Shown here: in pieces, positions 7,701-41,297 of the stretch | Numbering within the stretch: position 1 is the stretch's first letter | Layout of the letters: each line of letters starts with the position of its first letter | Source of the DNA: a virus | Length of the DNA stretch: 56,499 bases | Direction: 5' to 3' (one strand) | IMG/VR virus record: IMGVR_UViG_3300023179_000129 | Span: 1 to 56,499 of that record | Program-made: the position numbers and the translations under genes | Notes under the pieces: generated by a model | What the model was told of the DNA's origin: nothing | The model's database searches: none | What the model saw: only the letters and a program-made list of their open reading frames with translations

Positions 7701-8711
7701 CTCAATTAGAACGTCTTCGGTGATTGTTTCTTTATAGGAAAGAAAATTAATTTGGTTATCACCACCATCAGAGATAGTATTTCCGATTAAGTCTATCAAA
7801 CCATTTGGATAATCTTTTTCGATTAATTCGTTATTAAATGCGCAAAAAACGCCAGTTCTGTCTGTATCTCTGTTTATTGTAGTTTCTATGAATATGTTTC
7901 TACCATTTAAGTCTCTAAAGTAAGGTATCAAAGATAATCCCTCATAAAAAGCGAGAGCTGTAACATTTCTATCATTTGCAAAATTTCTAACTTGACCTTT
8001 TCTTAAACCAGAAGCACTAAAGTAATTTACCCATCTTGGATCAACTGCTAATTCTTGGTAATTTGACCAATCACCCGCAACAATCAAAACATCAACTAAG
8101 TAGTCAGAAGCAAAATCCAATCCATTAACATATGTTGGTAGTTTTTCAATTGAACCATACCACTCAAGTAATGTTCTATCGAATCCAGTAACAGTAGATT
8201 TGAAAATAAATACCGATACATATCTATCAGACAAGTTTGTAATACTAAATGCTCTTTCTGAGTATCCACTAGTATTTTTTGTTAGATTGATAAATGACTC
8301 TGTGTCTCTTTTCCAAAAACCAGTGGTATCAAAAAATCTTCTATACGGCCCTTCTCTCTCTATATCGTTTAGATAAGCAGCAGATGTAGAAAGTGATTGA
8401 TATTCTAACGTATCTAAATTATCGTCTGTTAATAACAAATTCATTGCAAAAACTGGAGAAGTTTCCAGCATTTTGTTTATAGTTCTGTGAAAGAATGATT
8501 TTTTTCTTTCTAAACCTCTATCTAATTGACCAAATATTGATTCGAGCTCATTTGAGTTTGTTATTCGTATAGGGGTATTGACAGGTCCTTTTTTAGAAAC
8601 TCCAATTACTAAATTGGTTATTCCCTCAGTTGTTGGACTTGTGATAACCGACTTGTCGAATTCTTCGATAAAGATTCCTGGTCTTTTGTATTTTCCAATT
8701 TGAATTGCCAT
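4755..8711 (-). CDS. 18: Tail sheath protein, gp18 family, about twice the usual length
   Basis: This is the subunit of the contractile sheath. The N-terminus (P-G-I-F-I-E-E-F-D then T-T-E-G-I-T-N-L-V-I-G, residues 12-36) and the C-terminal domain are characteristic. The latter includes R-T-A-S-M-P-D-G-T, Y-R-N-S-S near residue 1060, L-E-R-E-L-S-R-M-L-L-D-F-Q-W-R-F-N-T near 1218-1235, and a final beta arm G-M-G-I-I-V-N-N-I-T-I-L-R-T-G. At 1318 residues it is about double T4 gp18 (659). The excess lies in the middle (roughly residues 330-930), which is rich in Ser, Thr, Asn and Gly and probably forms extra surface domains on the sheath. It is transcribed alone, with an AT-rich promoter element before it and a terminator after it. 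Confidence 0.92.
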   Translation of the reverse strand: MAIQIGKYKRPGIFIEEFDKSVITSPTTEGITNLVIGVSKKGPVNTPIRITNSNELESIFGQLDRGLERKKSFFHRTINKMLETSPVFAMNLLLTDDNLDTLEYQSLSTSAAYLNDIEREGPYRRFFDTTGFWKRDTESFINLTKNTSGYSERAFSITNLSDRYVSVFIFKSTVTGFDRTLLEWYGSIEKLPTYVNGLDFASDYLVDVLIVAGDWSNYQELAVDPRWVNYFSASGLRKGQVRNFANDRNVTALAFYEGLSLIPYFRDLNGRNIFIETTINRDTDRTGVFCAFNNELIEKDYPNGLIDLIGNTISDGGDNQINFLSYKETITEDVLIESTPLDLPGNVTAMLGTYSFNNQADHAYNWSGFLSDKPLTSGVVENAERTAWFAESSVYNVSLHSATPSIVTATTSISITYDVNPNGAYVIVGNQYVPISATATLTLNSTDYPFNTSIATYSVAFVVDTTGEIKTVATYASDVNPSLNASDTVLGYLDLGIASQSFVAPQNFTVENISVDTNGFKDYSFGTNSTDDYYIYEVLPGYGDEIVIEFPGTNAVADTSNYEQYRKIKLFNRLVNLIDNSNKNQMSLVLNPNTYEKYSFENITISNIVQSSLFNKSFRLKTGLTSAQLSDILAGFFCVYTSDNEIILGTDGVESKSTIADFNSVGVSGKYSTLHQKFEDGLVNTGDYFFSNRMFLPYSGATYSATNLLNNGVDVYFVDGEEAPNGGLTQAYAGYNYIVFRSDVANWDTEIDLQTFEQLQFPGSSLNKGSFTLIVNPVDEFNGYTPHQIATSLGYGTGSYAYTVSEEVVYEELYAQTRVNDYLVRHYLKMYLDGSKNLYTDFVESDLETPSYVAHKANNDFYIKSEKSNYKQTIECELPTGYVQAPNKILINSARYTEVKVGDFLEAYYDPTTLAIGQYPRKLTRILSKRRYSGDLTLTEITCDSRILTRFSGDAIQTNRYVTVDQYATTLKTISLKGFRVRTASMPDGTETRQTAILNTVSRGTPLFKAITNKEAIDFRYLIDSFGLGLTEFSKQPLADICGTRLDCFGFINMPSARDYRNSSSPTFVNNENVLQIEYVAKGGDPESSPAFFYSFANGTGNTSVGYFFPYVIVSDNGRPLEHPPAPFVATTYMAKHISNIGNVTPWTIAAGVTNGRISGINSLEMDFTAEDIEFLNQAQINPLVFKRNRGFVIETENTAQTLVKSALSYIHVREVLIELERELSRMLLDFQWRFNTADIRAEIKLRADTICETYVSRNGLYNYFNKMDEENNTAELIDNQIGVLDTFVEPIKGMGIIVNNITILRTGAIEAGGFING

Positions 8712-14763: not shown

Positions 14764-14777
14764 ATAAAGTCTCCGTG

Positions 14778-15302
14778 ATGGCAAAACAAGGTGAAGAATT
14801 AGAAAGGCAAATGATATTTACCACCAATGTCGTGAATGAATCGACAGATAAGATTAATGATGGTATTGTCATTAAAAGATATCAAAATCCCTGGTTAAAA
14901 AGTGAAGTGGGTGTAAGAAGAGCGGGTGTGGCCTTTAAGATGACACAAGATGAACAACAGGAGTATATAAATTGTGCTTTGGATATACACTACTTTGTAG
15001 AAAAATACTGCAAAGTGAAAAGAGAAGATGGTTCAATTGGTAACATAAGTCTCAGGGATTATCAAAATGAAATACTTGATAATTTGGTAAATAGTCGATT
15101 TAATATAATAATGGCGAGTCGGCAAGTTGGAAAATGCTTTTCTTTTAACACAATAATATCGATTGAAAAAAATGATATCCAATACGATGTTAGAATAGGA
15201 AAGCTCTATTATTCAATGATTTCCAAAGAAAGAAAGCTTACAATTTTAGAAAAAATTAAGATTAAGTTATATGACTATCTATACAGATTAGAAAATCTCT
15301 AA
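14778..15302 (+). CDS. 17: Large terminase gp17, N-terminal half fused to N-intein
   Basis: This is the first piece of the ATP-driven DNA packaging motor, broken inside its ATP site. The ATG at 14778 is preferred over the GTG one codon earlier. The N-extein is about 119 residues and ends D-Y-Q-N-E-I-L…N-I-I-M-A-S-R-Q-V-G-K, the adenine-binding region and first part of Walker A. The Cys codon at 15135 then opens an intein (C-F-S-F-N-T-I-I-S-I, block A), which runs only 55 residues to TAA at 15300. The rest of the intein and of the terminase is encoded by the next gene. The tail of the N-intein (about 26 residues rich in Lys, Leu, Ile and Tyr) looks like an amphipathic helix. A functional terminase would require trans-splicing. 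Confidence 0.9.
   Translation: MAKQGEELERQMIFTTNVVNESTDKINDGIVIKRYQNPWLKSEVGVRRAGVAFKMTQDEQQEYINCALDIHYFVEKYCKVKREDGSIGNISLRDYQNEILDNLVNSRFNIIMASRQVGKCFSFNTIISIEKNDIQYDVRIGKLYYSMISKERKLTILEKIKIKLYDYLYRLENL
15135..15299 (+). other. N-terminal half of split intein (N-intein)
   Basis: This 55-residue N-intein starts with catalytic Cys1 directly after the terminase sequence A-S-R-Q-V-G-K. Only block A is present. Block B (the T/S-x-x-H region) is in the other gene, so the split lies much earlier than in usual split inteins, which break between blocks B and F. The AceL-TerL type, with an N-part of about 25 residues in terminase, is the known class with such an early break. Confidence 0.88.
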
Positions 15303-15336
15303 ACAATATGGTTGTGTATTCAGAAGATAACATAAT

Positions 15337-15347
15337 CTATATATAAA
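15337..15347 (+). promoter_or_regulatory. AT-rich element before the terminase C-half
   Basis: ctatatataaa ends two bases before the ATG at 15350, in the 47-base gap between the terminase halves. It matches the recurrent late-type element, so the second half seems to have its own expression signal. Confidence 0.5.
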
Positions 15348-15349
15348 AT

Positions 15350-15787
15350 ATGATTAAATCTGTTTTAATAAGGATAATAAAGTTTTTAATAACTTTTATT
15401 GAAAGAGTAGAACTGAGAAATTCTTCACTAGACGAAAATGACATCAATAAAAAAATACTAAATTCTATTAATGTTTTCGGGTTTAAAGTTAGAACTGATG
15501 CAGGATATGAAAAATTAACAGATTTGCATATAACCCAACCATATAGGCACTATGTTCTTAAAACAGATGGTTATGAATTGTCATGTGCTGATAATCATAT
15601 AGTCTTTGATAAGGACTATAATGAAGTATTTGTAAAAGATTTGGTGCTGGATGACATAATACAAACAGAGTCAGGATTACAAAGAGTAATATCTTTAAAG
15701 CAGGATAACTTTAAATCATCTATGTTTGATGCAACCGTTAATCATCAAAACCACAGATTTTACACAAATGGCATACTTTCACACAAT
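15350..15787 (+). other. C-terminal part of split intein (C-intein, blocks B, F and G)
   Basis: The 146-residue C-intein begins with a hydrophobic/basic helix (M-I-K-S-V-L-I-R-I-I-K-F-L-I), then an Asn/Asp-rich linker. Block B is E-L-S-C-A-D-N-H (about residues 76-83). Blocks F and G are M-F-D-A-T-V-N-H-Q-N-H-R-F-Y-T-N-G-I-L-S-H-N (split over 125-146), with the penultimate His and terminal Asn needed for cleavage. The +1 residue is Thr. No homing endonuclease domain is present. Confidence 0.88.
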
Positions 15788-17566
15788 ACAATCTCATCGG
15801 CAATTTTCATGTTACATAAAATACTATTTGATAATGACAAAAACATTATGATAGTTGCAAACAAAGGTGACACAGCTGTCGAGATTGTTGATAAAATCAA
15901 ATCAATTTATTCACTACTGCCATTTTTTCTAAAACCCGGTGTCAAAACTTGGAATCAAAAATCTTTAACTTTTGAAAACGGTTGTCGTATCAAAACTTCA
16001 GCTAGAACAAAAACACCAGCGATTGGTTTTACCATTGACGTGCTCTATCTGGATGAGTTTGCCCATATTCCATCAAATATCATTGAACCATACTATACGG
16101 CAGCTTTTCCAACTACAGCAGCAGTTCAGAACTCAAAAATAATTATAACATCAACTCCAAATGGAATGAATCTATTTCACAGGCTACTTACAGATGCTGA
16201 AAGACCAGAAGGTGATCCGCAAAAAAACAACTATAAACCAATGCGGGTTTATTGGTACCAAGTTCCTGGAAGATTCGTTACCTACATTAGATTAAATTCA
16301 CATAAACTATGGGATAACAAATTAACAAAAGAAGATGTGTTAGAACAATGTAGGGAAAAATTTGAAATGCGGACAAAAGTAGAAATGATTTGGAATTCTG
16401 ACCTACAAAAAGACATCATTTGTGTCTACAACAATGAGCACTGCTCTGACGACGAAGTAAAATCAACTATGATAAAGACCGAGAACAGAGAAATTTCAAT
16501 TAGGTCAATTTCAGAAGTCACTACCTGGAAAGAAGAAGCTATCAAGGATATTGGGGGCGAAGACGCCTTTAATCAGGAATATGGTCTAAGGTTTATAAAC
16601 GAATCTAAATCCTTATTAAATGAATCCATTATTGATGATCTATTGAGGAGTAAGAAAAATTATATTTTTGAGGAGATTGCTGAATTTGAGAGGATTAAGT
16701 TTGATTATTCAGACTTAAAATGGATAGATGATGAAGAAATTTACATACCAATAAAAAGAAAGGGTTACAAAATTGTAATATCTGTTGACTTAGCCGAAGG
16801 CCTAGGTCAGGATTACTCCGTAATTAACATTTTCAAAGTTGGCGTAAAACCAACGGATTTAATAGAACTTCAAAAGGCTAAATACGAATCGATTGTTGAT
16901 TTTTTTAGATTAGAACAAATTGGAATTTATCGAAGCAATATTATTTCAATAAAACAAGTAGCAGAACTTCTTTATCTACTAGCCTTCGAATTTTTTAATC
17001 CAGAAAATGTCAAAATTGTTTTAGAGTTAAACAACTATGGCAATACGCTGCTTGCAGAAATGCCCCACGTCTTTGAAGGAAATAATGATTACGGTTCTTC
17101 AATTTTTATGAGATATAAACACAGAATTGATTCAAATGAAGAAAAAGTAGGTCTCAAAGTCGGTGAGAATAAAAATATTTTAGTCAAAGACTATCAGGAC
17201 CTTATGTTGTCAAAATCATTTTATATAAACAACGAAGACACTATTAGAGAAATAACAACTTTTGTCAAGCACACAACCACTGCTGGAAATACAAGATATG
17301 CAGCAGATCACGGTCATGATGATTGTGTTATGACGATAGTCAACTCAACTTCGGTGTTCAAAAAACCAGAGTTTAGAGAAATCGTTGATGAATGGGCATC
17401 AAAAAATTTAGATAGAGAAACATTAGACCACATTAATGAAATTCTGAAAAAAATTGACTTTGTAGAAGGCGTTGATTATTCAACATTTATAGAGACTAAA
17501 AATGAAATTAGATTAAAAAAATCTATGAGTAACCCAAATATAAATAACTGGTTTAAAAGGGATTAA
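15350..17566 (+). CDS. 17: Large terminase gp17, C-intein fused to C-terminal part
   Basis: This 738-residue protein opens with a 146-residue C-intein ending G-I-L-S-H-N. It continues as terminase from Thr147, which completes Walker A as G-K-T. Terminase landmarks are Walker B L-Y-L-D-E-F-A-H (codons near 16047-16070), the coupling motif I-I-T-S-T-P-N-G, and the RNase H-like nuclease domain with V-D-L-A-E-G and D-H-G-H-D-D near the end. After splicing, the terminase would be about 711 residues against 610 in T4. About 85 extra residues lie between Y-W-Y-Q-V-P-G-R and T-W-K-E-E-A, a region that varies among T4-like terminases. The final four bases overlap the convergent clpS gene. Confidence 0.92.
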   Translation: MIKSVLIRIIKFLITFIERVELRNSSLDENDINKKILNSINVFGFKVRTDAGYEKLTDLHITQPYRHYVLKTDGYELSCADNHIVFDKDYNEVFVKDLVLDDIIQTESGLQRVISLKQDNFKSSMFDATVNHQNHRFYTNGILSHNTISSAIFMLHKILFDNDKNIMIVANKGDTAVEIVDKIKSIYSLLPFFLKPGVKTWNQKSLTFENGCRIKTSARTKTPAIGFTIDVLYLDEFAHIPSNIIEPYYTAAFPTTAAVQNSKIIITSTPNGMNLFHRLLTDAERPEGDPQKNNYKPMRVYWYQVPGRFVTYIRLNSHKLWDNKLTKEDVLEQCREKFEMRTKVEMIWNSDLQKDIICVYNNEHCSDDEVKSTMIKTENREISIRSISEVTTWKEEAIKDIGGEDAFNQEYGLRFINESKSLLNESIIDDLLRSKKNYIFEEIAEFERIKFDYSDLKWIDDEEIYIPIKRKGYKIVISVDLAEGLGQDYSVINIFKVGVKPTDLIELQKAKYESIVDFFRLEQIGIYRSNIISIKQVAELLYLLAFEFFNPENVKIVLELNNYGNTLLAEMPHVFEGNNDYGSSIFMRYKHRIDSNEEKVGLKVGENKNILVKDYQDLMLSKSFYINNEDTIREITTFVKHTTTAGNTRYAADHGHDDCVMTIVNSTSVFKKPEFREIVDEWASKNLDRETLDHINEILKKIDFVEGVDYSTFIETKNEIRLKKSMSNPNINNWFKRD

Positions 17567-23922: not shown

Positions 23923-25206
23923 ATGAAGAATCTTAAATTAGAATTGTTCAATTTCAAAAGGAGTCTAACATTAGACCAATCAGAAATTTGTCAAATTGTG
24001 GAAGGTCATATGAATGCTTGTGATGAACATTCAGAAAAAAACATTGTTATTTCATTGAACGAAAAGTTAAAACCATACACTTATGACAAGTCTGTAAAGT
24101 TCTTACTCGAATCGCTAAATAATGACATGTCAAACTACGAGTTGTTATATGAGTTAAAGAATTTATACAATGTTATTAACTCAAAAAACCAAGGTGAACT
24201 CTATAGACAACCTATCAATGTAATTTTACAGACAATTAATTTAGATTCCGACCAAGATAGACTATCAAAGGTTCTGAATGAATTAGCCGTTTACGATTGG
24301 GTTCCCGAAATCAAACTTTTTGTTCATAATTTAACAAAATCTCCCGAGAAAAGATCAAATTTACTAAGTGGTGGTAAGTCAGAGTCGGTATACACGCTCG
24401 TAGAGACGGTCCAGGATGGCCACATAGCATTGATTAAAGATTCTTGGTTTCTTTTAACTGAAAATTCTATTGAAAAAACTCTTTTAGAAAACAACACCGG
24501 AAATGAAGAAGAATTGATGACACTACGAACTCTACAAACAGCTATGAGTTATGCGACAATCTTTGAAGATAGGATAAACTTCAGAATTTCAGAATATCTA
24601 ACACTTGGTATGTCTGTGTCAAAAAAGGGTTTACTTTATGTAAACGATGATGAATTGAACGAAGAAACTACTCTGGAGTCTCTATTCTCTTCCCCTATTG
24701 TTCCGATTGTAAACAAAAATTTCTACCCAATGCTACAAACAGTATCTGAAAACTTAGATAAATTTGTTGAATTAGATGTAGTCAAAAGAGTTTCAAACCT
24801 AATAAATCCGTTTTTAGAGTGTTTTGCATTTAACTATAGAAATAATGTATACTTATACAGATGTGATGAAAGATATGGCAATTCATTCTTTAAATACGAG
24901 TCGGCTTTGGAACTAGTTAACGAAACTAAAAATGAGCTGAACTATGATTTAACATATTTCTTTGAAGACAAACTTTCTAAAGAATTAGTTGTTAAGAGAA
25001 AACTTGAAGATAAAGAAAGAGAAGTTACACTTAAATTAGAAGACGTTAATTTCAATATTGAGAAGGTCAAAAGTTCAATTAGATTGATTGGTGAATCACA
25101 AGTTTTAAACACCGCTCTGTCAAACTTAGAAAAAAGAGCTAAAGTTTTAGAAATTGAATTACTATCAATTAAAGAAACTCAATACAGAGAAAGAACATCA
25201 CTTTAA
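23923..25206 (+). CDS. Large protein of unknown function
   Basis: This 427-residue protein is mostly helical in residues 1-150, then a mixed region, and ends with a coiled coil (about residues 330-427, rich in Lys, Glu and Leu). It has no signal peptide, membrane segment or known motif. It is expressed alone, with its own AT-rich promoter element and a strong terminator 18 bases after the stop. Abundant proteins in such isolated units are often structural, so a virion role is plausible but unproven. Confidence 0.7.
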   Translation: MKNLKLELFNFKRSLTLDQSEICQIVEGHMNACDEHSEKNIVISLNEKLKPYTYDKSVKFLLESLNNDMSNYELLYELKNLYNVINSKNQGELYRQPINVILQTINLDSDQDRLSKVLNELAVYDWVPEIKLFVHNLTKSPEKRSNLLSGGKSESVYTLVETVQDGHIALIKDSWFLLTENSIEKTLLENNTGNEEELMTLRTLQTAMSYATIFEDRINFRISEYLTLGMSVSKKGLLYVNDDELNEETTLESLFSSPIVPIVNKNFYPMLQTVSENLDKFVELDVVKRVSNLINPFLECFAFNYRNNVYLYRCDERYGNSFFKYESALELVNETKNELNYDLTYFFEDKLSKELVVKRKLEDKEREVTLKLEDVNFNIEKVKSSIRLIGESQVLNTALSNLEKRAKVLEIELLSIKETQYRERTSL

Positions 25207-25444: not shown

Positions 25445-25771
25445 GTGTCTAAAGCACAAGGAAAATTAACAAGAAACGCAGAAAAAATGCTCGAGCTTCT
25501 AGCAAAGAAAACTGTAAAAAAAATGAGATACTGGTCAAATGACGACAAATTAGATTGTTATCAATCGGGCCTGTTAGATATGTTTCAAAACTGGTATAAT
25601 TTCAATGAAGAAAAATCGACTAACGCATTTGCCTACTTCACCGAGATATTTAAACGCGGCTTGGCCAAGGGATTTAACCAAATATACCTAAAGAAAGGAG
25701 ACAGCGATAATCAAATAAAACTGCTCTCTATTGAAGGATCTAATGAAGGACAAGGTCTACACTCAATTTAG
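25445..25771 (+). CDS. 55: Late sigma factor, gp55-like
   Basis: This 108-residue protein starts at GTG 25445; the frame is open for 23 codons upstream but has no ATG. The recognisable part is sigma region 2: W-S-N-D-D-K-L-D-C-Y-Q-S-G-L-L-D-M-F (about residues 30-47), then F-N-E-E-K-S-T-N-A-F-A-Y-F-T-E-I-F-K-R (about 53-71). T4 gp55 and related phage sigmas carry the same F-D-x-x-K-x-x-N-P-x-A-Y-x-T segment. gp55 recruits host RNA polymerase to late promoters of the TATAAATA type, and the AT-rich elements here are the obvious candidates. It is shorter than T4 gp55 (185). Confidence 0.78.
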   Translation: MSKAQGKLTRNAEKMLELLAKKTVKKMRYWSNDDKLDCYQSGLLDMFQNWYNFNEEKSTNAFAYFTEIFKRGLAKGFNQIYLKKGDSDNQIKLLSIEGSNEGQGLHSI

Positions 25772-25829: not shown

Positions 25830-26936
25830 CTAGTTGGAGTAAACAGTGGTTATCATTCTATGAGCGACTAGGTAAGGGTCGCAGTTAGAAGCTGGTCTTC
25901 TATCTTCAAAATATCCCCGGCCTTGAATTGTTGCCTGAGCGGGTATTCGAATTGAGGTATCACGGGTGCTATAGCCAAAACTAAAATCGTTGATTCCAGA
26001 AGTTTCATGGTGACCAGTTAATCTTTCTTCGTTGAATAGGCCATAAACATTAATGTGGTCTAAATGGTGTCTTTCTAGTTTTTTCATAGTCTCTTGAATT
26101 ACTTCAAAACCACCCTGTTCTCTCATCTCTTTTGTTGAGAAATTGACATGACATCCGGTTCCGTTCCAATCACCTTTTAATGGTTTAGGATGTAACGAAA
26201 CGTTGACGGTGTATAACTCAGCCACTCGCTGTAAAATATATCGTGAAATCCAAAGTTGGTCAGAGCCATTTAGTGATGTGACCGGGCCAATTTGATATTC
26301 CCACTGACCAAGTAAAACTTCGGCATTTATTCCAGAAATATCGAGTCCAATTTCCATGCACATGTTCATGTGTTTTTCAACAATTTCTCTACCGATGACG
26401 GTGTCGGCTCCTATGCCACAATAGTAATCTCCCTGTGGTCTAGGTGTTTTAGTTGGATCGTCTTCTACAAATCCGAGAGGGATTCCAACGCCATCAGAAA
26501 ACGGTCTCTGTGGCTTGTGAGTGAGGGTATATTCCTGTTCCCAGCCAAACCAGGGGAGGTCGTTTTTTTTACCAGTTTCGAGCAATTCTAACTCATTTAA
26601 TTTTTCTTCCAGTCTTCTTCTATTATTTGAGACATGTGGTGAACCATCAGGGTTCAAAACCTCGCAAAGTATTAGTTTGTCTCCAAATTCTCTAAACGGA
26701 TCATTAACTACAAAAACCGGTTTAAGTAGACAATCTGTATTTTCTCCACGGCCGGCTTTAGCCTGATTTGTAGAACTTCCATCAAAAGACCACAATTCGT
26801 AGTCATCCGGTTTATTTGAATTTTTATACAATTTTTCACCGCTTTGTAAAAAATTTGATTCGATAATTTTAGTTTTGCTTCTGAGCTTTTGGGGATTTGA
26901 ACCGTCAAGCCAGATATATTCCAATTTATATTTCAT
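25830..26936 (-). CDS. glnA: Type II glutamine synthetase (beta-grasp family)
   Basis: The start is taken at ATG 26936 (M-K-Y-K-L-E-Y-I-W-L-D-G), because 15 further upstream residues are hydrophobic and absent from the family. The 368-residue enzyme makes glutamine from glutamate, ammonia and ATP. Active-site signatures are intact: W-S-F-D-G-S-S-T (about residues 49-56), W-F-G-W-E-Q-E-Y (about 127-134), G-I-N-A-E-V-L-L-G-Q-W-E-Y-Q (about 200-213), D-W-N-G-T-G-C-H-V-N-F-S (about 252-263), G-H-H-E-T-S-G-I-N-D-F-S-F-G and R-R-P-A-S-N-C-D-P-Y near the end. GSII occurs in eukaryotes and some bacteria including Bacteroidota. Inside a phage it is an auxiliary metabolic gene, presumably gained from a host. 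Confidence 0.93.
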   Translation of the reverse strand: MKYKLEYIWLDGSNPQKLRSKTKIIESNFLQSGEKLYKNSNKPDDYELWSFDGSSTNQAKAGRGENTDCLLKPVFVVNDPFREFGDKLILCEVLNPDGSPHVSNNRRRLEEKLNELELLETGKKNDLPWFGWEQEYTLTHKPQRPFSDGVGIPLGFVEDDPTKTPRPQGDYYCGIGADTVIGREIVEKHMNMCMEIGLDISGINAEVLLGQWEYQIGPVTSLNGSDQLWISRYILQRVAELYTVNVSLHPKPLKGDWNGTGCHVNFSTKEMREQGGFEVIQETMKKLERHHLDHINVYGLFNEERLTGHHETSGINDFSFGYSTRDTSIRIPAQATIQGRGYFEDRRPASNCDPYLVAHRMITTVYSN

Positions 26937-27000
26937 AACAAAGTATATATTAATTTCAAAACAAATGTTTATCAAAACCATATATTTTTTTGATTATTAT

Positions 27001-27279
27001 ATGAAACTATCTTATATTCAACTTTGGGAAATATTACTAACAGATAACTCCATACAATCTGATGGCTGTTCTTTGCATCTTACTATAGCAGATAGAGATT
27101 TTTTTTTAGATAAGATGTCACAAAGCAATGATGAAAGACCCTGTGGCATTTACGAAAAAGTTTTTGTCAGCGATTTGATTTGGGAGATTGTGAAAAAAGA
27201 AAAAAGTGTGCGAATATCAGAAGTTGAATTTAATAATTCATTAAATCTTAAAAATATTAAAGTTTACGAAAATGTTTAA
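27001..27279 (+). CDS. Small protein of unknown function
   Basis: From ATG 27001 the product is 92 residues (M-K-L-S-Y-I-Q-L-W-E-I-L-L); longer starts would run into the glutamine synthetase gene. The protein is helical at the start, has a C-S-L-H-L-T-I strand near residue 24, and is acidic overall with no known motif. Its end overlaps by eight bases the start of a small membrane protein gene, so the two are probably coupled. Confidence 0.6.
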   Translation: MKLSYIQLWEILLTDNSIQSDGCSLHLTIADRDFFLDKMSQSNDERPCGIYEKVFVSDLIWEIVKKEKSVRISEVEFNNSLNLKNIKVYENV

Positions 27280-27592
27280 TCTTATTTCACTACTTTTTAT
27301 CTTCTCTAATTTTTATTTTATCTACCATTATAAAAGACTAGATGAACCGATAAGGGTCAGAGATTACAGTAAAAAATTGGACTTAGTTTATTATATTTCA
27401 AAGCCGGTTTTTTTTATTTGGGTGTTGGTTGGTATCATGTTTTCTATTTCCAATATCTACCTTTATCTTGGTCTAATAAGTTTTCTGCGTATTCCAATTT
27501 ATTACACCAATAAATCAATTTACTCACGTTATCACAGACTTATTCCAGTGTTGAATTTGGCGCTCTTAATTTTGTTATTATTTGGGTTATAA
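27272..27592 (+). CDS. Small multi-span membrane protein
   Basis: This 106-residue protein has three or four hydrophobic segments: residues 3-18, about 45-62 (V-F-F-I-W-V-L-V-G-I-M-F-S-I), 63-73 and 91-105. Short basic loops lie between them. It is an integral inner-membrane protein of unknown role. Small phage membrane proteins include holins, superinfection-exclusion proteins and lysis regulators; nothing in the sequence decides among them. The final six bases overlap the convergent gp4 gene. Confidence 0.6.
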   Translation: MFNLISLLFIFSNFYFIYHYKRLDEPIRVRDYSKKLDLVYYISKPVFFIWVLVGIMFSISNIYLYLGLISFLRIPIYYTNKSIYSRYHRLIPVLNLALLILLLFGL

Positions 27593-28114
27593 ATTAAATT
27601 TTTTTAAGTGGTCTTCTGTTATTATTATAAACTCAAATCCTTTTTTTTGACACCAAGAAATCATAGTGTCCCATTTTTGTTTATTTTTATAAGCCATTTT
27701 TAGATCGTATTCAAAGTTTTTGAGTTTCTTTCCCCGGTTTTCAGGAATCTCTAATCTACCTTCATTCAGGGCTAACACCATGTTATATTCTTTTTGAGGT
27801 TTGACTTCAACTACTACCTTTTTTGTTAGAGTCTCATTAATTTTCATTTCATAATAAAAGTCAGGATAGTACGAGTGTTCTTTTATTTTAGTATCACCTT
27901 TATCAAAGTGTGTCATCTGGTATGGAATTTTCAAACATTCCGCGCCCCAAATAGATATTTTATCATTGTGGTCTAACCAAGTCATTATCTTTTTCTCCCA
28001 ACTGCTTCGAAAAAATACGCCTCCAAGTGAATTTAATTTCAGCACTTTTTCTTTAAACTTTGGAATATAATTGCCCTGGTTATAGTTTGAATTATTAGGT
28101 TTAGCGTTTAACAT
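27587..28114 (-). CDS. 4: Head completion protein gp4 family
   Basis: This 175-residue protein carries the gp4/gp50 core, which is a restriction-endonuclease-like fold: F-F-R-S-S-W-E-K-K-I-M-T-W-L-D (about residues 34-48), W-G-A-E-C-L-K-I-P-Y, Y-Y-P-D-F-Y (about 82-87) and V-V-V-E-V-K-P (about 99-105). The last two form the P-D…E-x-K catalytic pattern. In T4, gp4 completes filled heads before tail joining. The length is near T4 gp4 (150). It is expressed divergently from the next gene through a shared AT-rich element. Confidence 0.85.
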   Translation of the reverse strand: MLNAKPNNSNYNQGNYIPKFKEKVLKLNSLGGVFFRSSWEKKIMTWLDHNDKISIWGAECLKIPYQMTHFDKGDTKIKEHSYYPDFYYEMKINETLTKKVVVEVKPQKEYNMVLALNEGRLEIPENRGKKLKNFEYDLKMAYKNKQKWDTMISWCQKKGFEFIIITEDHLKKFNL

Positions 28115-30586: not shown

Positions 30587-31087
30587 CTACAACTGGTCTT
30601 CTAATGAGGGTCTTGTTTTTTTAATCAGTTCTAATCTAACTTTCATTAAAATTTTACCTAAATTATTCTCACCAGTGTTGCCGCATTTTAGACAATTACA
30701 ATTTCCCCAAAAATTATCATGCCACCAGTTTTCTTCGACTAATTCAAAACCAACAGTGTCAATTAGTTGTTCGGCTAAAGATTCATCAGAGAACTTTTGT
30801 GTTATTGCTAAATTCATAAAATCTAATTTTTTTTCACCCCAATCTGTTCGGAGTGTGACTCTTTGTCCTATTTTTTTAACATCTTGGGCTAGTGGAATTT
30901 TTGAAATAAGTTCTCGTAAATCCGGAGCAGTGTAGTATTTTCCATCTATAAATTGCAAAGTGTTTACTTTTAGGGCAACATAGAAGTGCTCTACAGATGG
31001 GTAAATGATTCCTTGGTGTTCTATTTTACACGGGTAGAAATTAGAAAGAAAGTAATATCGACCTTGAAATTTCGTTATCTTTGACAT
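30587..31087 (-). CDS. NADAR-domain protein (YbiA-like)
   Basis: The start is ATG 31087; an open frame continues upstream into the tmRNA terminator and must be ignored. The 166-residue product matches NADAR: F-Q-G-R-Y-Y-F-L-S-N-F-Y-P-C (about residues 6-19), Y-P-S-V-E-H-F-Y-V-A-L-K (about 29-40), W-W-H-D-N-F-W-G-N-C (about 119-128) and a closing G-K-I-L-M-K-V-R. Some NADAR proteins remove ADP-ribose from guanine in DNA and act as antitoxins to DarT-type toxins; others act on riboflavin intermediates. In a phage, reversal of host ADP-ribosylation defence is a plausible role. The C-N-C-x2-C cluster could bind a metal. Confidence 0.85.
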   Translation of the reverse strand: MSKITKFQGRYYFLSNFYPCKIEHQGIIYPSVEHFYVALKVNTLQFIDGKYYTAPDLRELISKIPLAQDVKKIGQRVTLRTDWGEKKLDFMNLAITQKFSDESLAEQLIDTVGFELVEENWWHDNFWGNCNCLKCGNTGENNLGKILMKVRLELIKKTRPSLEDQL

Positions 31088-31110
31088 ATAGATTATATAT
31101 TGTAAAAAGT

Positions 31111-31134
31111 AAAAGTCCACTCTAGGTGGACTTT
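31111..31134 (-). terminator. Terminator of the tmRNA gene
   Basis: On the minus strand AAAGTCCAC and GTGGACTTT form a 9-bp stem around CTAGA (loop/closing bases), followed by a T-rich run. It lies six bases after the tmRNA CCA end. Confidence 0.85.
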
Positions 31135-31139
31135 CTAAT

Positions 31140-31506
31140 TGGTGGAGATGACGTTGCACTGCCCAACGTGTCTTCTTTAGTTGATAATAACTATTCGTTC
31201 ACAAGCTTAGTCACTTTTTCTAAAGTGGCAAAATAGATGGTTTTTTTGAAAAAACTTCTAAAAACTAACAAAAACCGGTTCCAAATTTACTGTCTGGTTC
31301 AGTTGTAGATTTTTTACAATTAAGCAAATTGTAGCTCTTCTACTTTGAGCAGGTTGTTTTGTAGGGCCGCTACTAAATCTTCACGAGTTCCTACTTGATT
31401 TGTGTTGCCATTTACAACAGTGTTATCTAATTTATTAGTCGGATATTTAACAAGCCGACACTTGCATAAAAACCACCTGACTACGAATCTATTCTATGAC
31501 ATCCCC
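31140..31506 (-). ncRNA. ssrA: Transfer-messenger RNA (tmRNA) with long, non-canonical tag
   Basis: Read on the minus strand, the 367-base gene begins GGGGATG and ends CATCTCCACCA. The ends pair in a 7-bp acceptor with one G-U, and CCA is encoded. AGATTCG near the 5' end matches the conserved tmRNA D-loop region. CAAG/CTTG with GTCGG/CCGAC (about 31450-31480) forms the first pseudoknot. A reading frame from GGC at 31409 to TAA at 31320 encodes a 29-residue tag that starts G-N-T-N and ends E-E-L-Q-F-A. This is far longer than the usual 8-12 residues, and its end is not L-A-A. The T-arm would be ACGTTG/CAACGT with a GGCAGTG loop, lacking the usual TTCRA. tmRNA frees stalled ribosomes and tags the nascent chain; SmpB would come from the host. 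Confidence 0.88.
31320..31409 (-). other. tmRNA tag reading frame (29 residues)
   Basis: The frame is GGC-AAC-ACA-AAT… to TAA. Residues 1-4 are G-N-T-N; residues 10-20 are E-D-L-V-A-A-L-Q-N-N-L; the last six are E-E-L-Q-F-A. The exact resume codon is inferred from the G-x-x-N opening shared with Bacteroidota tags; the frame is open for several codons upstream. Confidence 0.7.
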
Positions 31507-34269: not shown

Positions 34270-35967
34270 TTAGTTCAAGTACTGACCAGCGTCAGTAACT
34301 TGGATAGTCATAAACTGTTTTTGTGGGAACCAACCAACTTCTGTTACAGCATATCTTGATCTCAATAACATTCTTGGAGCAAATGTAGCCTCAGAGATGA
34401 TAGAGATTGATTGTGCCATCAAGTAAGGAACGAAGATGATACCTGGTTGATCAGGATTGTTCTTTCTTCCTAAAACGATTCTGTTGTCGTTATATCTCAT
34501 ATAAGGGTCAACGTAGATAGAAATATCACCGATTGAACCTACTGGGTATAATTGACCAGAAGCATTCATTTTTGATTTAACAGGGTTAATAGTATATCCA
34601 GCGATATCAGAAAGAGCAGCAGCAAGACCTCCATTTGTGATAAGGTATTGAGCAGGACCTACACGACCTTCAGTAGCGATGAAGTTAGAAGCGTGAACAA
34701 TCTTAGTGATTAATTTACGCTGAATAGCGTGAGTTGTTTCACCACCAGGACCTGTAGATGTAGCATAAGATGTATCTAAGTCGAAGATAGGATTACCACC
34801 AGCATTTAATGGAGCTGATGTTCTGTTCAAAGTTCCTAATTCGAAGACTTTAGCAACGATTTGTTTTGAAATTGTTTGAGACAATTCGTTAACAAGAATA
34901 GATTCCATTTTTTGAACGATGTCCATACCTGTGTTAGCTTTGATATCTTCGATTTCGGTTCTTCTAAGTGCTGAAGATACTTCGATAGTACCAACTGCTA
35001 CAGTTTTAGAAGAAATTTTAGGACCGATAACTCCTGGGTAGCTATCATCATCAGCACCTCTATCCATTGGATACTGTCCGTTAAATCCTGAACCATACTG
35101 AGCCCAGTTAGCAGAGAATCCAGGGATGTGGTCTTCAAGAGCCGAAACTAAATCAACTGATGGGTTAATTGTATTTTGACCAGCAACTGATGTAATTTGA
35201 GAAAGCATAGAAGACGTTCCAGTAAAGGTGTTTCTATTTTGGTCGAAAGCGAAAACAGATCCAGCAGAACCAACTGCAGTGTGAGCAGTGTTGAACTGTC
35301 TGAAAGCTCTAAACATTGGGAATCCGTCGATTCTTGAGAATCCTAAAAACTCAACGATACCTTGTTTAGAAGCTGTTCCAGGTATAGTTTGAGAAGCAGT
35401 TGCATTTAATCCACTTTGACCAGTTCCGTTAATTGAATAATAGAATGGTCCATTTTGTAAACCTCCTGTTGATTGGTTGATAGAAGCACCAGCACCAGTC
35501 AACATTGCAGATTTAATAGTGCTGATGTTTGTAGCATTCAATTTGAATACTTGTGGTCTTTCATCTGCATCACCTAATCTTGCGTCATCATAACGGAAGT
35601 CGATAAAAAGAAGGTCGATTTTTGGACCAGGAGTTGGTTTAACAGCAACAAGGTCAAGACCGATTGTTTGAGCTGCGATTTTCATCGCAACTGGAAGTAG
35701 GTTTTGACCTACATCACCTGAACCAGCAGCTCCGGTCCAGTTAGCACCTTGAATGGTACCTGTTGGGTTACCAACACCGATTACAGGGTTAAGGACAGCA
35801 CCCATACCTGTAACGTTAGAAGCGTTTACATAAGCATTCTCGTTGATTGAGTGGAACTCAGCATATTCTGACATCCATTCTACTCTATCACCTTCAACTC
35901 CCATGTTTTCCAAAACTGGAGACCACTTCTTAATAGCTTTTTGTTTGTCTATTCTAATGTGTGACAT
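34270..35967 (-). CDS. 23: Major capsid protein gp23
   Basis: This 565-residue HK97-fold capsid protein is recognised by M-G-A-V-L-N-P (about residues 55-61), L-L-P-V-A-M-K-I-A-A-Q-T-I-G-L-D-L-V-A-V-K-P near 89-110, L-L-F-I-D-F-R-Y, and the C-terminal segments I-Y-V-D-P-Y and P-Y-L-M-A-Q-S. The N-terminal 43 residues are charged and end in I-N-E, a match to the prohead protease consensus, so the mature protein may start at Asn44. T4 gp23 (521) is likewise trimmed at its N-terminus. A strong terminator follows the gene, and the protease/scaffold gene lies directly upstream, as in T4 head clusters. Confidence 0.95.
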   Translation of the reverse strand: MSHIRIDKQKAIKKWSPVLENMGVEGDRVEWMSEYAEFHSINENAYVNASNVTGMGAVLNPVIGVGNPTGTIQGANWTGAAGSGDVGQNLLPVAMKIAAQTIGLDLVAVKPTPGPKIDLLFIDFRYDDARLGDADERPQVFKLNATNISTIKSAMLTGAGASINQSTGGLQNGPFYYSINGTGQSGLNATASQTIPGTASKQGIVEFLGFSRIDGFPMFRAFRQFNTAHTAVGSAGSVFAFDQNRNTFTGTSSMLSQITSVAGQNTINPSVDLVSALEDHIPGFSANWAQYGSGFNGQYPMDRGADDDSYPGVIGPKISSKTVAVGTIEVSSALRRTEIEDIKANTGMDIVQKMESILVNELSQTISKQIVAKVFELGTLNRTSAPLNAGGNPIFDLDTSYATSTGPGGETTHAIQRKLITKIVHASNFIATEGRVGPAQYLITNGGLAAALSDIAGYTINPVKSKMNASGQLYPVGSIGDISIYVDPYMRYNDNRIVLGRKNNPDQPGIIFVPYLMAQSISIISEATFAPRMLLRSRYAVTEVGWFPQKQFMTIQVTDAGQYLN

Positions 35968-36020: not shown

Positions 36021-38183
36021 TTAAATGTTTTTGAATCTTTCTAAGATAGCCTTAGCTTCTTTGTCTGAAATTTTTTCTTCTTGGATTAACATTTCATGAG
36101 AAACTAATTGTTTCGTATAGGATTCGTTTTTTTTGAGATTTCTAGTAGACCAGAAATGCTCAACTTGTGATTCAGTCATTAGGACTTCAGCAGGGTACAA
36201 TCTAGCTTGTGAAAGAATAGATTTTTTGCTTGAGTCTGTTAACTGTTCCCAGATTGGCTTAATGTTTTCAGGCATCAATCTGATAACTCTTGATTCAAGA
36301 GATTCATTTTTAGCTGACAGTGATTCCGCGATTAGACTCAGAACTTCTTTCTGAGAGAAATAACTTCTTTCGTTTATGTGAAGTTTAACAGATTCTTGTT
36401 CTTCGTCAGATAGTGCGTAGAAACTGTCTACTTGTGACTTGTTTAAGAACTTCAAGAAGTTCAAATCAGTCGATTCAGAAACTTTTCGTTTTTTAGCTTC
36501 TTCAATAAGTTTATTTATAGATTCTGATAATTCAGAATCGTCTTTTCCAGATACCAAGTAATCCCTTTCATTGTCTTCATCTTCTTCGTCTTTGTTTTTC
36601 CAAGCCTCTTTGTTTTTTGACGGGATTCCATTATACTCATAACCGTGATTTCGTCCTTTACCTTCTTCTTCTTCTACATTTTCAAAACCAGCAGCCGATA
36701 AAGAAGGAAACTCATGGCTCATTCCGCCATTTTCAAAAAGTCTCCCAGTTTTCGAATTCAATTTTTCAACAATCATACCTTGGTAGGAAATAGATTTATC
36801 TAGATTTTCAGCGATATACTCAGAATAAGCAATGTTGTCATCTAAGTGTTCTGCGATGTACTCAGAGTAAGCGATGTTCCCTTCAACGTGTTCCGCTAAG
36901 TATTCAGAGTAAGCGATTGAATTATCAACATGTTCTGCGATATATTCTGAATAAGCAATGTTTTTGTCTAAGTGTTCTGCGATATACTCAGAGTAAGCAA
37001 TGTTTTTGTCTAAGTGTTCTGCGATATACTCAGAGTAAGCAATGTTTTTGTCTAAGTTTTCTGCGATATACTCAGAGTAAGCAATGTTTTTGTCTAAGTT
37101 TTCTGCTAAATATTCTGAGTAAGAAATATTCTTATCTAAATTTTCAGCAATATACTCCGAATAAGAAATGTTTTTGTCTAAGTTTTCAGCAACATATTCT
37201 GAATAAGAAATGTTTCTGTCTAAGTTTTCTGCTAAGTACTCAGAATACTCGATATTCTTGTCTAGGTTTTCTGCGACATACTCTGTATAATTGATTGCTT
37301 TTTCAAGATTTTCCGCTAAATAGTCGTTGTGTCTAGCTAATTTTTGGGTTGTAGATTTAAGAGATTTATTTTCATTAACTACAACTTGAATTTTTTCAGC
37401 TAAATAATCTAAGTATTTAACTACTTGTGAATTAGTTGAATTTAATTCTTCGTAGTATTCTAATAACTGTTCCATTTTTCTTGGCGTCAAATTACCTTTT
37501 GATAAAGCAGTTTTAACTTCTTTTTTAGTTGAAGCCAACTCGTTGACTAGATATTGTGAATAATCAGTCAATTGTTTTTTGGTGACAAAATCGTTTGTGT
37601 TCATATTAAATAATTCATTTATTTTTGACTCGTCGGACATTTCATATATCCTAAAGTTGGTATTTTTGCTAAATCCTAAAGATTCATTCAGTGGTTTGAC
37701 ACTCATTCTAGCCGAAGCAAATCCTGGGTCAGCTACTATGTCGTAAGTAAAAAGTTTTTTTAATGAGACCGATCCATCTGATTCAGTCACCCCAGCCGCT
37801 CTGGAAGAAACAAAAACTGGACATCCGTCGTCAACTAACGCTCTGGCTTCTCTACCCCAGTAGGTGGTAAGTAATCTGATTTCACCCTCTACTTTATTTG
37901 AGTGTTTAACATAATTAACTTTTTCAATTATGTGAGATGCTCTAGCAAGTGATGTATCAAAAACATCCGGATGGTCAAATTCACCATAAACTGCACCAAG
38001 CGTGTTCATTCGCTCTTTCAACTCATCAAGCGCAGGTAAAAATTTATCAGCAGTATAGATTCTTTCGTTTCTATTTTTTATACCGAACTCTGTAAAAGTT
38101 CCACCCATAACGTATTCTTTTTTAGAAGAATTTTCCCTGATAAGAGATGATGTCGAATTTTCAACTATTAATACTGGTTTCAT
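36021..38183 (-). CDS. 21: Prohead protease fused to scaffold (gp21-gp22 type)
   Basis: This 720-residue fusion has a protease domain in residues 1-165, with G-E-F-D-H-P-D holding the catalytic His71 and V-F-V-S-S-R-A-A-G holding the catalytic Ser (126 or 127). From about 170 the chain is helical and scaffold-like. Residues 285-466 are 13 tandem 14-residue units of the form Y-S-E-Y-I-A-E-N-L-D-K-N-I-A. The C-terminus is acidic, then helical. Each unit contains a (I/L/V)-A-E site, close to the (L/I)-x-E consensus cut by T4 gp21. L-N-E-S (165-168) could release the protease. In T4 the protease (gp21) and scaffold (gp22) are separate genes. Confidence 0.88.
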   Translation of the reverse strand: MKPVLIVENSTSSLIRENSSKKEYVMGGTFTEFGIKNRNERIYTADKFLPALDELKERMNTLGAVYGEFDHPDVFDTSLARASHIIEKVNYVKHSNKVEGEIRLLTTYWGREARALVDDGCPVFVSSRAAGVTESDGSVSLKKLFTYDIVADPGFASARMSVKPLNESLGFSKNTNFRIYEMSDESKINELFNMNTNDFVTKKQLTDYSQYLVNELASTKKEVKTALSKGNLTPRKMEQLLEYYEELNSTNSQVVKYLDYLAEKIQVVVNENKSLKSTTQKLARHNDYLAENLEKAINYTEYVAENLDKNIEYSEYLAENLDRNISYSEYVAENLDKNISYSEYIAENLDKNISYSEYLAENLDKNIAYSEYIAENLDKNIAYSEYIAEHLDKNIAYSEYIAEHLDKNIAYSEYIAEHVDNSIAYSEYLAEHVEGNIAYSEYIAEHLDDNIAYSEYIAENLDKSISYQGMIVEKLNSKTGRLFENGGMSHEFPSLSAAGFENVEEEEGKGRNHGYEYNGIPSKNKEAWKNKDEEDEDNERDYLVSGKDDSELSESINKLIEEAKKRKVSESTDLNFLKFLNKSQVDSFYALSDEEQESVKLHINERSYFSQKEVLSLIAESLSAKNESLESRVIRLMPENIKPIWEQLTDSSKKSILSQARLYPAEVLMTESQVEHFWSTRNLKKNESYTKQLVSHEMLIQEEKISDKEAKAILERFKNI
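36786..37331 (-). repeat. 42-base coding tandem repeat (13 units) in the scaffold part
   Basis: Thirteen in-frame 42-base units with gradual divergence from end to end; the central ones (about 36950-37080) are nearly identical at the DNA level. They encode 14-residue helical units, each with a candidate protease site. Confidence 0.88.
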
Positions 38184-39647: not shown

Positions 39648-41297
39648 TCAGAACTCAAACTCTCCACCACCGCCTGCTTCATCAGCAGGGGCTTCTTCTG
39701 CAGCAGGAGCCTCCTCTGTTGGTGCTTCGGCACCGGCTTCGGCACCGGCTTCGGCACCGGCTTCGGCACCGGCTTCGGCGCCGGCTTCAGCTGAACCAGC
39801 ACCAGAAGCATCTTTAGCCCAATATTTTTGGTTTTCGGCTTTTTCTTCAGGTGTCAACTTAAACACATTATCCATAATCCACTCAATATGGAAGTAAGGT
39901 TTTTCTCCATTCATAATACCAGTTAAAGTAGTTATAGCCTCTGCTCTTTTTGCAAGTGTGTTTATTTTCTTCCACTCTTCAAAGACTTGGTTAGTATAAA
40001 ATATCACATCAACAGAATTTAGAAATATCTCATCATCCTTTAGCTCTGGAAATTCTATTAACATCTGTAGCTTCAGTGGTTTTACTATCAGTTCTTTAAA
40101 TATTGTTCTAAGTCTCATAATGAAATTGTGAAATTTAATTTCATCTCTGGTCATTTCAGCAGCATCTGTGATTAAGTTTCCACCACCACCTTCAGCCTCA
40201 AGTCTTGTAAGAGGAATTTTAGAAGCTCTTTTAAGTGCCTGGTGAAACCATTTTAACATTGTTTCTTCATTTAAGTCATGTCCTTGTGGACCAACTAATT
40301 CCATTTGAGGCGTTCCAGCGTCCCCTTCAGGAAACCAAACTTGCTTGTTATAAGGTAAGTGTTTTGACCCGTTGATTGACAGAGTTCCAAGAGTATCATC
40401 CCATTCAACTTCTTCAGAATAGTCCTGTATCAGCTGGCCAATTTGTTCTTCGGCTCGTTGTCTCGAGAGTCCTTTTACTGGAATGACAAATTTTTGATAG
40501 ATAGTGGCATTAATCACATTATACATAATTCTTGTTTGTTCAAGAATTTTAAGTTGGTTGTAGGGTTTGATTAACCCCTCAACATAAGAGGTTTCAGAAT
40601 AATCGTTTTGTGTTGAGTAAGATATAAAAACTATTTGCGAATCTAAAAATATTCTTCTTAATTGGGGATCTTCTGGAAACTGAATCCAAAGATGACCAAC
40701 ATTGGGCTCATAAGCCGGTACTAATGTCTCAGGTCGTAATCTATTGAATCCTAAGATATTTTTCTTTTTATCGTCATAAATAAACTCAACAGCGATAAAA
40801 CCGTCTATTAAAAAATCTCTCATCATTTGCCAAGCTGTGATACTATCAGCAAAACCATACTTATTATAAAGTTTTTCAAAATATTCTATATACTTATCTT
40901 GAATTTCTTGTGGATAATCAGTTGGTAGAGGCCTTGGTGAGCAAAAGTCTCGTGTGTCGTTATAAACGATGGACTCGTCTGAGATAGAACTGACAAAGTC
41001 TCTTATTTCATCTTTAATTGAATATTCTCTTAGTATTCTTCTTTTATCAGCGTAAGCTTTATCTAAGTAAGGAATGGATTTCCTGTTAAGAACCGAAGCA
41101 ACAGCTCTCTGAGAAAAAAAATCATACATTGAATTTCCACGAGCTGAATAAGGATCTTCGTTGATTCCTATACCTACTTGATTTCTAATAATCATGTCGT
41201 CGTAGTTCATACCGTAGTTAGAAAGAGTTCTAAGGATTCTACTAAATAAACCCTTATTTTCTACAGGAGAGTTTAATCCTAAGTTATTATCAGCCAT
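39648..41297 (-). CDS. 20: Portal protein gp20
   Basis: This 549-residue portal forms the dodecameric ring at the head vertex. Typical gp20 landmarks are a central W-Q-M-M-R-D-F-L-I-D-G-F-I-A-V-E (about residues 161-176), R-L-R-P-E-T-L-V-P (about 192-200), the stem helices around P-L-T-R-L-E-A-E-G-G-G-G (about 361-372), and T-R-D-E-I-K-F-H-N-F-I-M-R-L-R (about 381-395). Residues about 499-549 are a low-complexity Ala-Glu-Gly repeat ending in E-F-E-F, absent from T4 gp20 (524). A promoter element lies about 23 bases upstream. Confidence 0.94.
   Translation of the reverse strand: MADNNLGLNSPVENKGLFSRILRTLSNYGMNYDDMIIRNQVGIGINEDPYSARGNSMYDFFSQRAVASVLNRKSIPYLDKAYADKRRILREYSIKDEIRDFVSSISDESIVYNDTRDFCSPRPLPTDYPQEIQDKYIEYFEKLYNKYGFADSITAWQMMRDFLIDGFIAVEFIYDDKKKNILGFNRLRPETLVPAYEPNVGHLWIQFPEDPQLRRIFLDSQIVFISYSTQNDYSETSYVEGLIKPYNQLKILEQTRIMYNVINATIYQKFVIPVKGLSRQRAEEQIGQLIQDYSEEVEWDDTLGTLSINGSKHLPYNKQVWFPEGDAGTPQMELVGPQGHDLNEETMLKWFHQALKRASKIPLTRLEAEGGGGNLITDAAEMTRDEIKFHNFIMRLRTIFKELIVKPLKLQMLIEFPELKDDEIFLNSVDVIFYTNQVFEEWKKINTLAKRAEAITTLTGIMNGEKPYFHIEWIMDNVFKLTPEEKAENQKYWAKDASGAGSAEAGAEAGAEAGAEAGAEAGAEAPTEEAPAAEEAPADEAGGGGEFEF
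39729..39800 (-). repeat. Short tandem repeat in the portal C-terminus (Ala-Glu-Ala-Gly)
   Basis: About six copies of the 12-base unit gccggcttcggc, in frame, encode an Ala-Glu-Ala-Gly string. The GC content is far above the surrounding DNA. Confidence 0.85.

What the first reader, a model, noticed from the sequence alone, without database searches (positions are those of the whole stretch)
25830..26936. Glutamine synthetase type II carried by a phage
Seen: a 368-residue GSII with intact active-site segments, between the late sigma factor and a small unknown gene. Known: GSII is uncommon in bacteria but present in Bacteroidota. Inference: the phage supports glutamine supply for nucleotide synthesis during infection, a nitrogen-metabolism auxiliary gene, and the type points to its host lineage. 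I do not recall this as a common phage gene.
Basis: partly seen in the sequence, partly recalled or inferred. Interest (0 to 1): 0.66.

Follow-up and report, generated by a model that had tools for sequence, protein, structure and literature searches.

The report
Glutamine-making enzyme in huge phages
A huge virus of (probably Bacteroidota) bacteria carries an intact type II glutamine synthetase gene, and uncultivated relatives carry it at one fixed place beside their virion genes and have lost it several times, which fits an optional metabolic helper gene and not a one-off oddity or an assembly error.

Summary
25830-26936 (minus strand) encodes a full-length 368-aa type II glutamine synthetase (GSII): it matches solved GSII structures over its whole length and keeps every catalytic and ammonium-site residue checked. 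The window is a 56-kb fragment of a Mahaphage-type huge phage; its capsid protein is 72% identical to those of the complete 635- and 642-kb phages. The gene is not an assembly error: all 80 closest viral loci have GSII at the same spot, between a head-closure gene and the late sigma factor. The GSII of this lineage and of a very distant second phage lineage (terminase about 30% identical) form one clade (support 100/99) with no close cellular relative found. Loci picked by a neighbouring gene show 48 of 66 with GSII; the rest lack it, implying several losses. dN/dS is about 0.15. Best reading: a catalytic auxiliary metabolic gene giving glutamine during infection, useful but dispensable. The nucleotide-supply purpose is unproven: the two nearest complete phages encode no glutamine amidotransferase, but one relative has carAB. 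Phage glutamine synthetase is already reported (moraphages, glnA surveys); the lineage, fixed site and losses are the added detail.

The parts
25830..26936 (-). Type II glutamine synthetase (GSII), 368 aa, intact active site
26937..27015 (.). Upstream region of GSII; in relatives holds a quasi-palindrome TAAAC(AAA/TTT)GTTTA about 40-50 nt before the ATG, degenerate in the window itself
25445..25771 (+). Late sigma factor homologue (PHROG 234), convergent with GSII; conserved neighbour in relatives
23923..25206 (+). Conserved 427-aa unknown protein, used as anchor for GSII presence/absence
26875..27279 (+). Small fast-evolving gene divergent from GSII (true start probably downstream of this TTG)
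27272..27592 (+). Second small fast-evolving gene; hydrophobic in relatives
27587..28114 (-). Head-closure / TnsA-like protein, conserved neighbour on the other side of GSII
34270..35967 (-). Major capsid protein, 72% identical to the 635- and 642-kb huge phages
36021..38183 (-). Prohead protease
39648..41297 (-). Portal protein
14775..17566 (+). Terminase large subunit in two frames, split by an intein

Best explanation
The gene is a phage-borne auxiliary metabolic gene for a catalytically competent GSII. During infection it makes glutamine from glutamate, ammonium and ATP, in addition to the host's own glutamine synthetases and, being of type II, out of reach of adenylylation (which acts on type I enzymes; own knowledge). 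The extra glutamine feeds host amidotransferases (purine, CTP and carbamoyl-phosphate synthesis, amino sugars) and protein synthesis while a genome of several hundred kb and a large virion are made. It sits at one fixed place in the virion-gene region, was present in the ancestor of this lineage, is under purifying selection and has been lost several times, so it is useful only under some conditions. Shown: identity, fold, intact residues, phage location, selection, presence/absence pattern. Inferred: activity, timing, direction of the changes (loss), and the use made of the glutamine.
For: Full-length match to solved GSII. AlphaFold model with pLDDT 88.5 and pTM 0.91, best PDB matches all GSII with TM 0.81-0.92. 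D52, S55, E133, E135, Y172, E206, E213, N258, G259, H263, R305, E311, R325, R330, E344 and R346 are invariant in 29 sequences; these include the ammonium-site positions. Phage context: T4-like virion genes throughout the window, and synteny in all 80 closest viral loci. One clade of 36 de-replicated phage sequences, 100/99. Median dN/dS 0.148 in 88 pairs. Presence/absence: 48 of 66 informative loci have GSII, at least 4 state changes, Mantel r 0.60 with 0 of 1000 permutations as high. Glutamine users in relatives: carAB on a GSII-positive 204-kb contig and a GlmS-like protein beside GSII in L172.
Against: The two nearest complete phages (642 and 635 kb) encode no class I or class II glutamine amidotransferase and no asparagine synthetase or P-II protein, so no phage-encoded glutamine user is paired with the gene there. 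carAB was found on one contig only. The curated GlnII cut-off is missed (389 of 500 bits). Activity, oligomer and expression are untested. The 636-kb relative has no glutamine synthetase.
Confidence: 0.75

Rival explanations
1. A gamma-glutamyl ligase that joins glutamate to an amine or to another molecule (polyamine, nucleotide, wall or DNA-modifying group) and not to ammonium.
For: Glutamine-synthetase-fold ligases with other acceptors exist, and phages carry many amidoligases. The phage GSII has clade-specific insertions and a long stem branch.
Against: The ammonium-site residues (D52, S55, Y172, E206, E311) are invariant and shared with bacterial GSII; the closest folds are ordinary GSII, whereas phage amidoligases match only at TM about 0.3.
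Confidence: 0.1
2. A moonlighting or structural role: the protein works in virion assembly or as a regulator, which would explain its place among head genes.
For: Fixed position next to head closure, and between a holin-like gene and the prohead protease in the second lineage, where it overlaps the next start codon.
Against: It is absent from many close relatives, mostly without a replacement gene, which an essential virion part would not allow; catalytic residues are invariant.
Confidence: 0.07
3. A counter-defence or stress role: the enzyme mainly removes ammonium set free by host breakdown, or alters host glutamine/2-oxoglutarate signalling so that nitrogen-starvation responses stay off.
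For: Type II enzymes escape adenylylation (own knowledge); the window also holds a NADAR-family protein; presence is patchy, as for conditional traits.
Against: No direct evidence; no linked nitrogen regulator such as P-II in the huge phages searched.
Confidence: 0.06
4. Host DNA joined to a phage contig by misassembly.
Against: All 80 closest loci from many metagenomes have the same neighbours; complete 635- and 642-kb genomes carry it.
Confidence: 0.01

Closest known systems
Cellular GSII (GlnII; eukaryotic-type glutamine synthetase), e.g. Streptomyces 4bax, yeast 3fky, maize 2d3a
   Same: Same fold (TM 0.85-0.92), same catalytic and ammonium-site residues, similar length
   Different: Only about 41-46% identical; own phage clade on a long stem; extra loops near residues 28-40 and 108-125; under the NCBIfam GlnII cut-off
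Moraphage glutamine synthetases (Perez-Hernandez et al. 2025, PMC12619734)
   Same: Large aquatic phages, mostly predicted Bacteroidota hosts, 9 of 25 encode glutamine synthetase, read as an auxiliary metabolic gene
Mahaphage huge phages (Al-Shayeb et al. 2020, PMC7162821), LR756502 and LR745206
   Same: Capsid protein 72% identical, GSII 67-70% identical at the same site
   Different: The main text of that paper does not mention glutamine enzymes; that these two accessions are its 642- and 634-kb genomes is inferred from their lengths
GSII of the 735-kb phage LR756501
   Same: A GSII in a related huge phage
   Different: 47% identical, other genomic place, groups with L168 and cellular Verrucomicrobiota/Pseudomonadota sequences: a separate origin
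Viral glnA in surveys (e.g. PMC11944383, PMC13037316)
   Same: Phage contigs with glutamine synthetase genes
   Different: Reported as counts by annotation; type and lineage not resolved in the passages read

Membership tests
Type II glutamine synthetase | Beta-grasp plus catalytic domain with GSII-type length and full-length similarity to GSII over type I/III | tested here: met
   PDB GSII E about 1e-95 versus about 1e-9 for type I; GSII folds best
Type II glutamine synthetase | Conserved metal, ATP, glutamate and ammonium site residues | tested here: met
   All invariant in 29 sequences
NCBIfam equivalog GlnII (NF041605) | Curated cut-off of 500 bits | tested here: not met
   389 bits; L082 passes with 551 but the other phage relatives tested score 395-446. 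The family-level GSII call rests on the rows above; the GlnII equivalog label is not claimed
Type II glutamine synthetase | Decameric assembly and glutamine synthesis in vitro | not testable with these tools
   needs protein
Auxiliary metabolic gene | Metabolic gene inside a phage genome | tested here: met
Auxiliary metabolic gene | Not needed by every member of the lineage | tested here: met
   48 of 66 loci have it, others lack it
Auxiliary metabolic gene | Derived from a cellular gene | tested here: inconclusive
   No parent clade found; Bacteroidota GSII not sampled
Auxiliary metabolic gene | Expressed in infection and changing host metabolism | not testable with these tools
   no infection data
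Mahaphage clade | Capsid and terminase group with the Mahaphage members | tested here: met
   Capsid 72%, next best 53-54% in the 636- and 735-kb phages; terminase 70%; by similarity, no tree built
Mahaphage clade | Genome of several hundred kb | tested here: inconclusive
   The window is a 56-kb fragment; relatives lie on contigs up to 476 kb and complete genomes of 635-642 kb
Moraphage lineage | Groups with published moraphage genomes | not tested
   sequences not in the collections at hand

The most novel reading that the evidence does not exclude
A phage-specific GSII clade that has been inherited within the virion-gene region of two very distant T4-like large-phage lineages, perhaps with its own regulatory box, making these phages partly independent of host nitrogen control late in infection.
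Probability: 0.35. Interest if true: 0.6.

Novelty: new member of a known kind. Interest (0 to 1): 0.42.

Why it matters
Nitrogen assimilation genes in phages are usually known as annotation counts. Here one can see a defined enzyme clade at a fixed locus with natural presence/absence pairs, so its value to a phage can be tested and its ecology (which waters and hosts keep it) can be asked. It also bears on how the largest phages meet the nitrogen demand of genomes above 600 kb.

Tried and rejected
Misassembly: rejected. Host parent of the gene: the scan of 84,980 species found only 44-46% relatives plus L082 (51%), whose contig has phage-like genes and which is the only hit in 297 genomes of its phylum, so it looks misbinned. 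The upstream TAAACAAAGTTTA box as a general phage promoter: rejected, its full form is found almost only at GSII. TAnnTTTG as a Bacteroidota promoter signal: not enriched over shuffles as a degenerate pattern (21 versus 16.4); TATATTTG is (13 versus 2), but the loci are homologous and the antisense count is equal, so it was not used. P-II, asparagine synthetase and class II amidotransferases as partners: none in eight huge-phage records. Wider spread of carAB: none found. An Rfam scan of the window gave nothing.

Full report
What is there. The window's minus strand 25830-26936 is an uninterrupted frame of 368 codons. Pfam gives the glutamine synthetase catalytic domain (58 bits, cut-off 24). 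phmmer against the PDB gives yeast and Streptomyces GSII at about 1e-94 and type I enzymes only at about 1e-9. The AlphaFold model (pLDDT 88.5, pTM 0.91) is closest to Streptomyces, human and maize GSII, with TM-scores of 0.85-0.92 for these. Among predicted structures of viral proteins nothing comparable is held; the best named hits are amidoligases at TM about 0.3. The NCBIfam GlnII model scores 389 bits, under its cut-off of 500.

Active site. In an alignment of 29 phage and bacterial sequences the residues that correspond to the metal, ATP, glutamate and ammonium positions of human GS (human assignments from my own knowledge) are all invariant: D52, S55, E133, E135, Y172, E206, E213, N258, G259, H263, R305, E311, R325, R330, E344, R346.

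The carrier. The window record is an IMG/VR virus record of 56,499 bases with T4-like virion genes: tail tube, tail sheath, terminase, clamp loader, late sigma, head closure, capsid, prohead protease, portal. Its capsid protein is 72-73% identical to LR745206 (634,780 bp) and LR756502 (642,428 bp), 53-54% to the 636- and 735-kb phages, and 28-29% to Lak phages. Al-Shayeb et al. place their largest genomes in the Mahaphage clade and predict Bacteroidetes hosts for those over 634 kb. Gene starts in the window and relatives lack Shine-Dalgarno motifs (strong motif at 1 of 467), which agrees with a Bacteroidota host (own knowledge).

How widespread. All 80 loci kept have, as far as their flanks reach, the head-closure gene, the small genes or the late sigma gene beside GSII. 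A second group (most of L133-L157) has GSII 57-68% identical but terminase about 30% identical; in its representative L142 the order is terminase, portal, unknown, holin-like, GSII, unknown, prohead protease on one strand, with the GSII stop overlapping the next ATG.

Origin. In a careful tree of 62 sequences the 36 phage sequences of both groups are one clade, support 100/99, on a stem of 0.5 changes per site. Sampled Verrucomicrobiota, Pseudomonadota, Streptomyces and yeast lie outside, as do 13 other viral sequences of several kinds. The GSII of the 735-kb phage groups elsewhere, so GSII entered these huge phages at least twice. Bacteroidota GSII could not be sampled; what can be said is that the 84,980-species scan found no gene closer than about 51%, and that the 51% hit sits on a phage-like contig. 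That scan used exact peptide patterns and can miss relatives.

Presence and absence. Taking the neighbour 23923-25206 as an anchor without regard to GSII, 48 of 66 loci with enough flank have GSII and 18 do not; with the head-closure gene as anchor 62 of 64 have it, a set biased to close relatives. In most GSII-less loci the late sigma gene and the first small gene are separated by a spacer of roughly 90-350 nt; some hold other genes instead, for example a cyclase-like frame in L253 or other genes in L255 and L286. On the anchor tree the state needs 7 changes, at least 4 forced by well-supported branches, far fewer than with shuffled labels (14.6). GSII and anchor distances correlate (Mantel r 0.60, 0 of 1000 permutations as high). 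Because all copies sit at the same place, loss is likelier than repeated gain; that is inference. dN/dS is 0.148 (median of 88 pairs, not independent), near the 0.129 of the neighbour.

What it is for. The two nearest complete phages have no glutamine amidotransferase of class I or II, no asparagine synthetase and no P-II protein at the thresholds used, so the glutamine would be used by host enzymes. In one GSII-positive relative, a 204-kb contig, carA (439 bits, cut-off 307) and carB (1229 bits, cut-off 1027) form an overlapping pair next to a guanylate-kinase-like gene in surroundings of even, about 30%, GC. carB is read with 914 codons and covers model positions 2-930 of 1052, so it may be shortened. 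No second such contig was found. In a marine contig of another GSII type, L172, GSII lies near a GlmS-like amidotransferase and sugar-nucleotide enzymes. These are hints that phage-made glutamine is spent on nucleotides or amino sugars, not proof.

Regulation. GSII is divergent from the small gene upstream and convergent with the late sigma gene, so in the window's lineage it is probably its own transcription unit (inference from gene order). In 33 of 48 distinct relatives a box AAAC(A/T)3GTTT lies mostly 41-47 nt before the ATG (shuffled mean 0.08), and its full form is rare elsewhere in those loci. The sequences are related, so the count overstates independence, and the window has only a degenerate form.

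Known or new. Phage glutamine synthetase is known: nine of 25 moraphages, jumbo-phage surveys, virome surveys. No held paper uses the phrase 'phage-encoded glutamine synthetase', and the passages read do not describe this GSII clade, its fixed site or its losses. Most subscription papers and all bioRxiv preprints were outside the library. I file it as a new member of a known kind.

Noticed in passing
14775-17566 (+): The terminase large subunit is interrupted at the P-loop (...ASRQVGK|CFSFNTIISI... and ...FYTNGILSHN|T...): an intein whose two halves lie in separate frames 47 nt apart, which looks like a natural split intein; LR756502 has an intact 712-aa terminase.
   Followed up: partly
26937-27015 and loci L002-L140: Quasi-palindrome TAAAC(AAA/TTT)GTTTA upstream of GSII in most relatives, almost absent elsewhere.
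   Followed up: partly
53374-54522 (-): Polyphosphate kinase 2 homologue (TIGR03707, 310 bits, above the 302 cut-off); the 735-kb phage has a 43% relative near its GSII (L091 22443-23657).
   Followed up: no
30587-31159 (-): NADAR-family protein (TIGR02464 71 bits, just under cut-off; weak match to an anti-phage NADAR model).
   Followed up: no
4755-8711 (-): Tail sheath of 1318 aa, unusually long; only the last third matches sheath families well.
   Followed up: no
45186-49538 (-): 1450-aa unannotated protein in a stretch of clearly higher GC (0.416 against about 0.33).
   Followed up: no
L036/G004 contig about 62260-66100; L368 6287-10098: Phage-borne carAB (glutamine-dependent carbamoyl-phosphate synthase) on a GSII-positive 204-kb contig, and a RelA/SpoT-like gene elsewhere on it (L216).
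   Followed up: partly
L253 8075-8767; L238 between sigma and GSII: Class III nucleotidyl-cyclase-like frame next to the GSII site in some relatives; weak adenylate-cyclase match.
   Followed up: no
L082: The 'Desulfobacterales' MAG contig with the closest GSII outside IMG/VR and the huge phages carries phage-like genes at 2x coverage and is probably a misbinned phage.
   Followed up: partly
L172 4268-9802: A different marine phage GSII beside a GlmS-like protein and a GDP-mannose dehydratase-type enzyme.
   Followed up: partly
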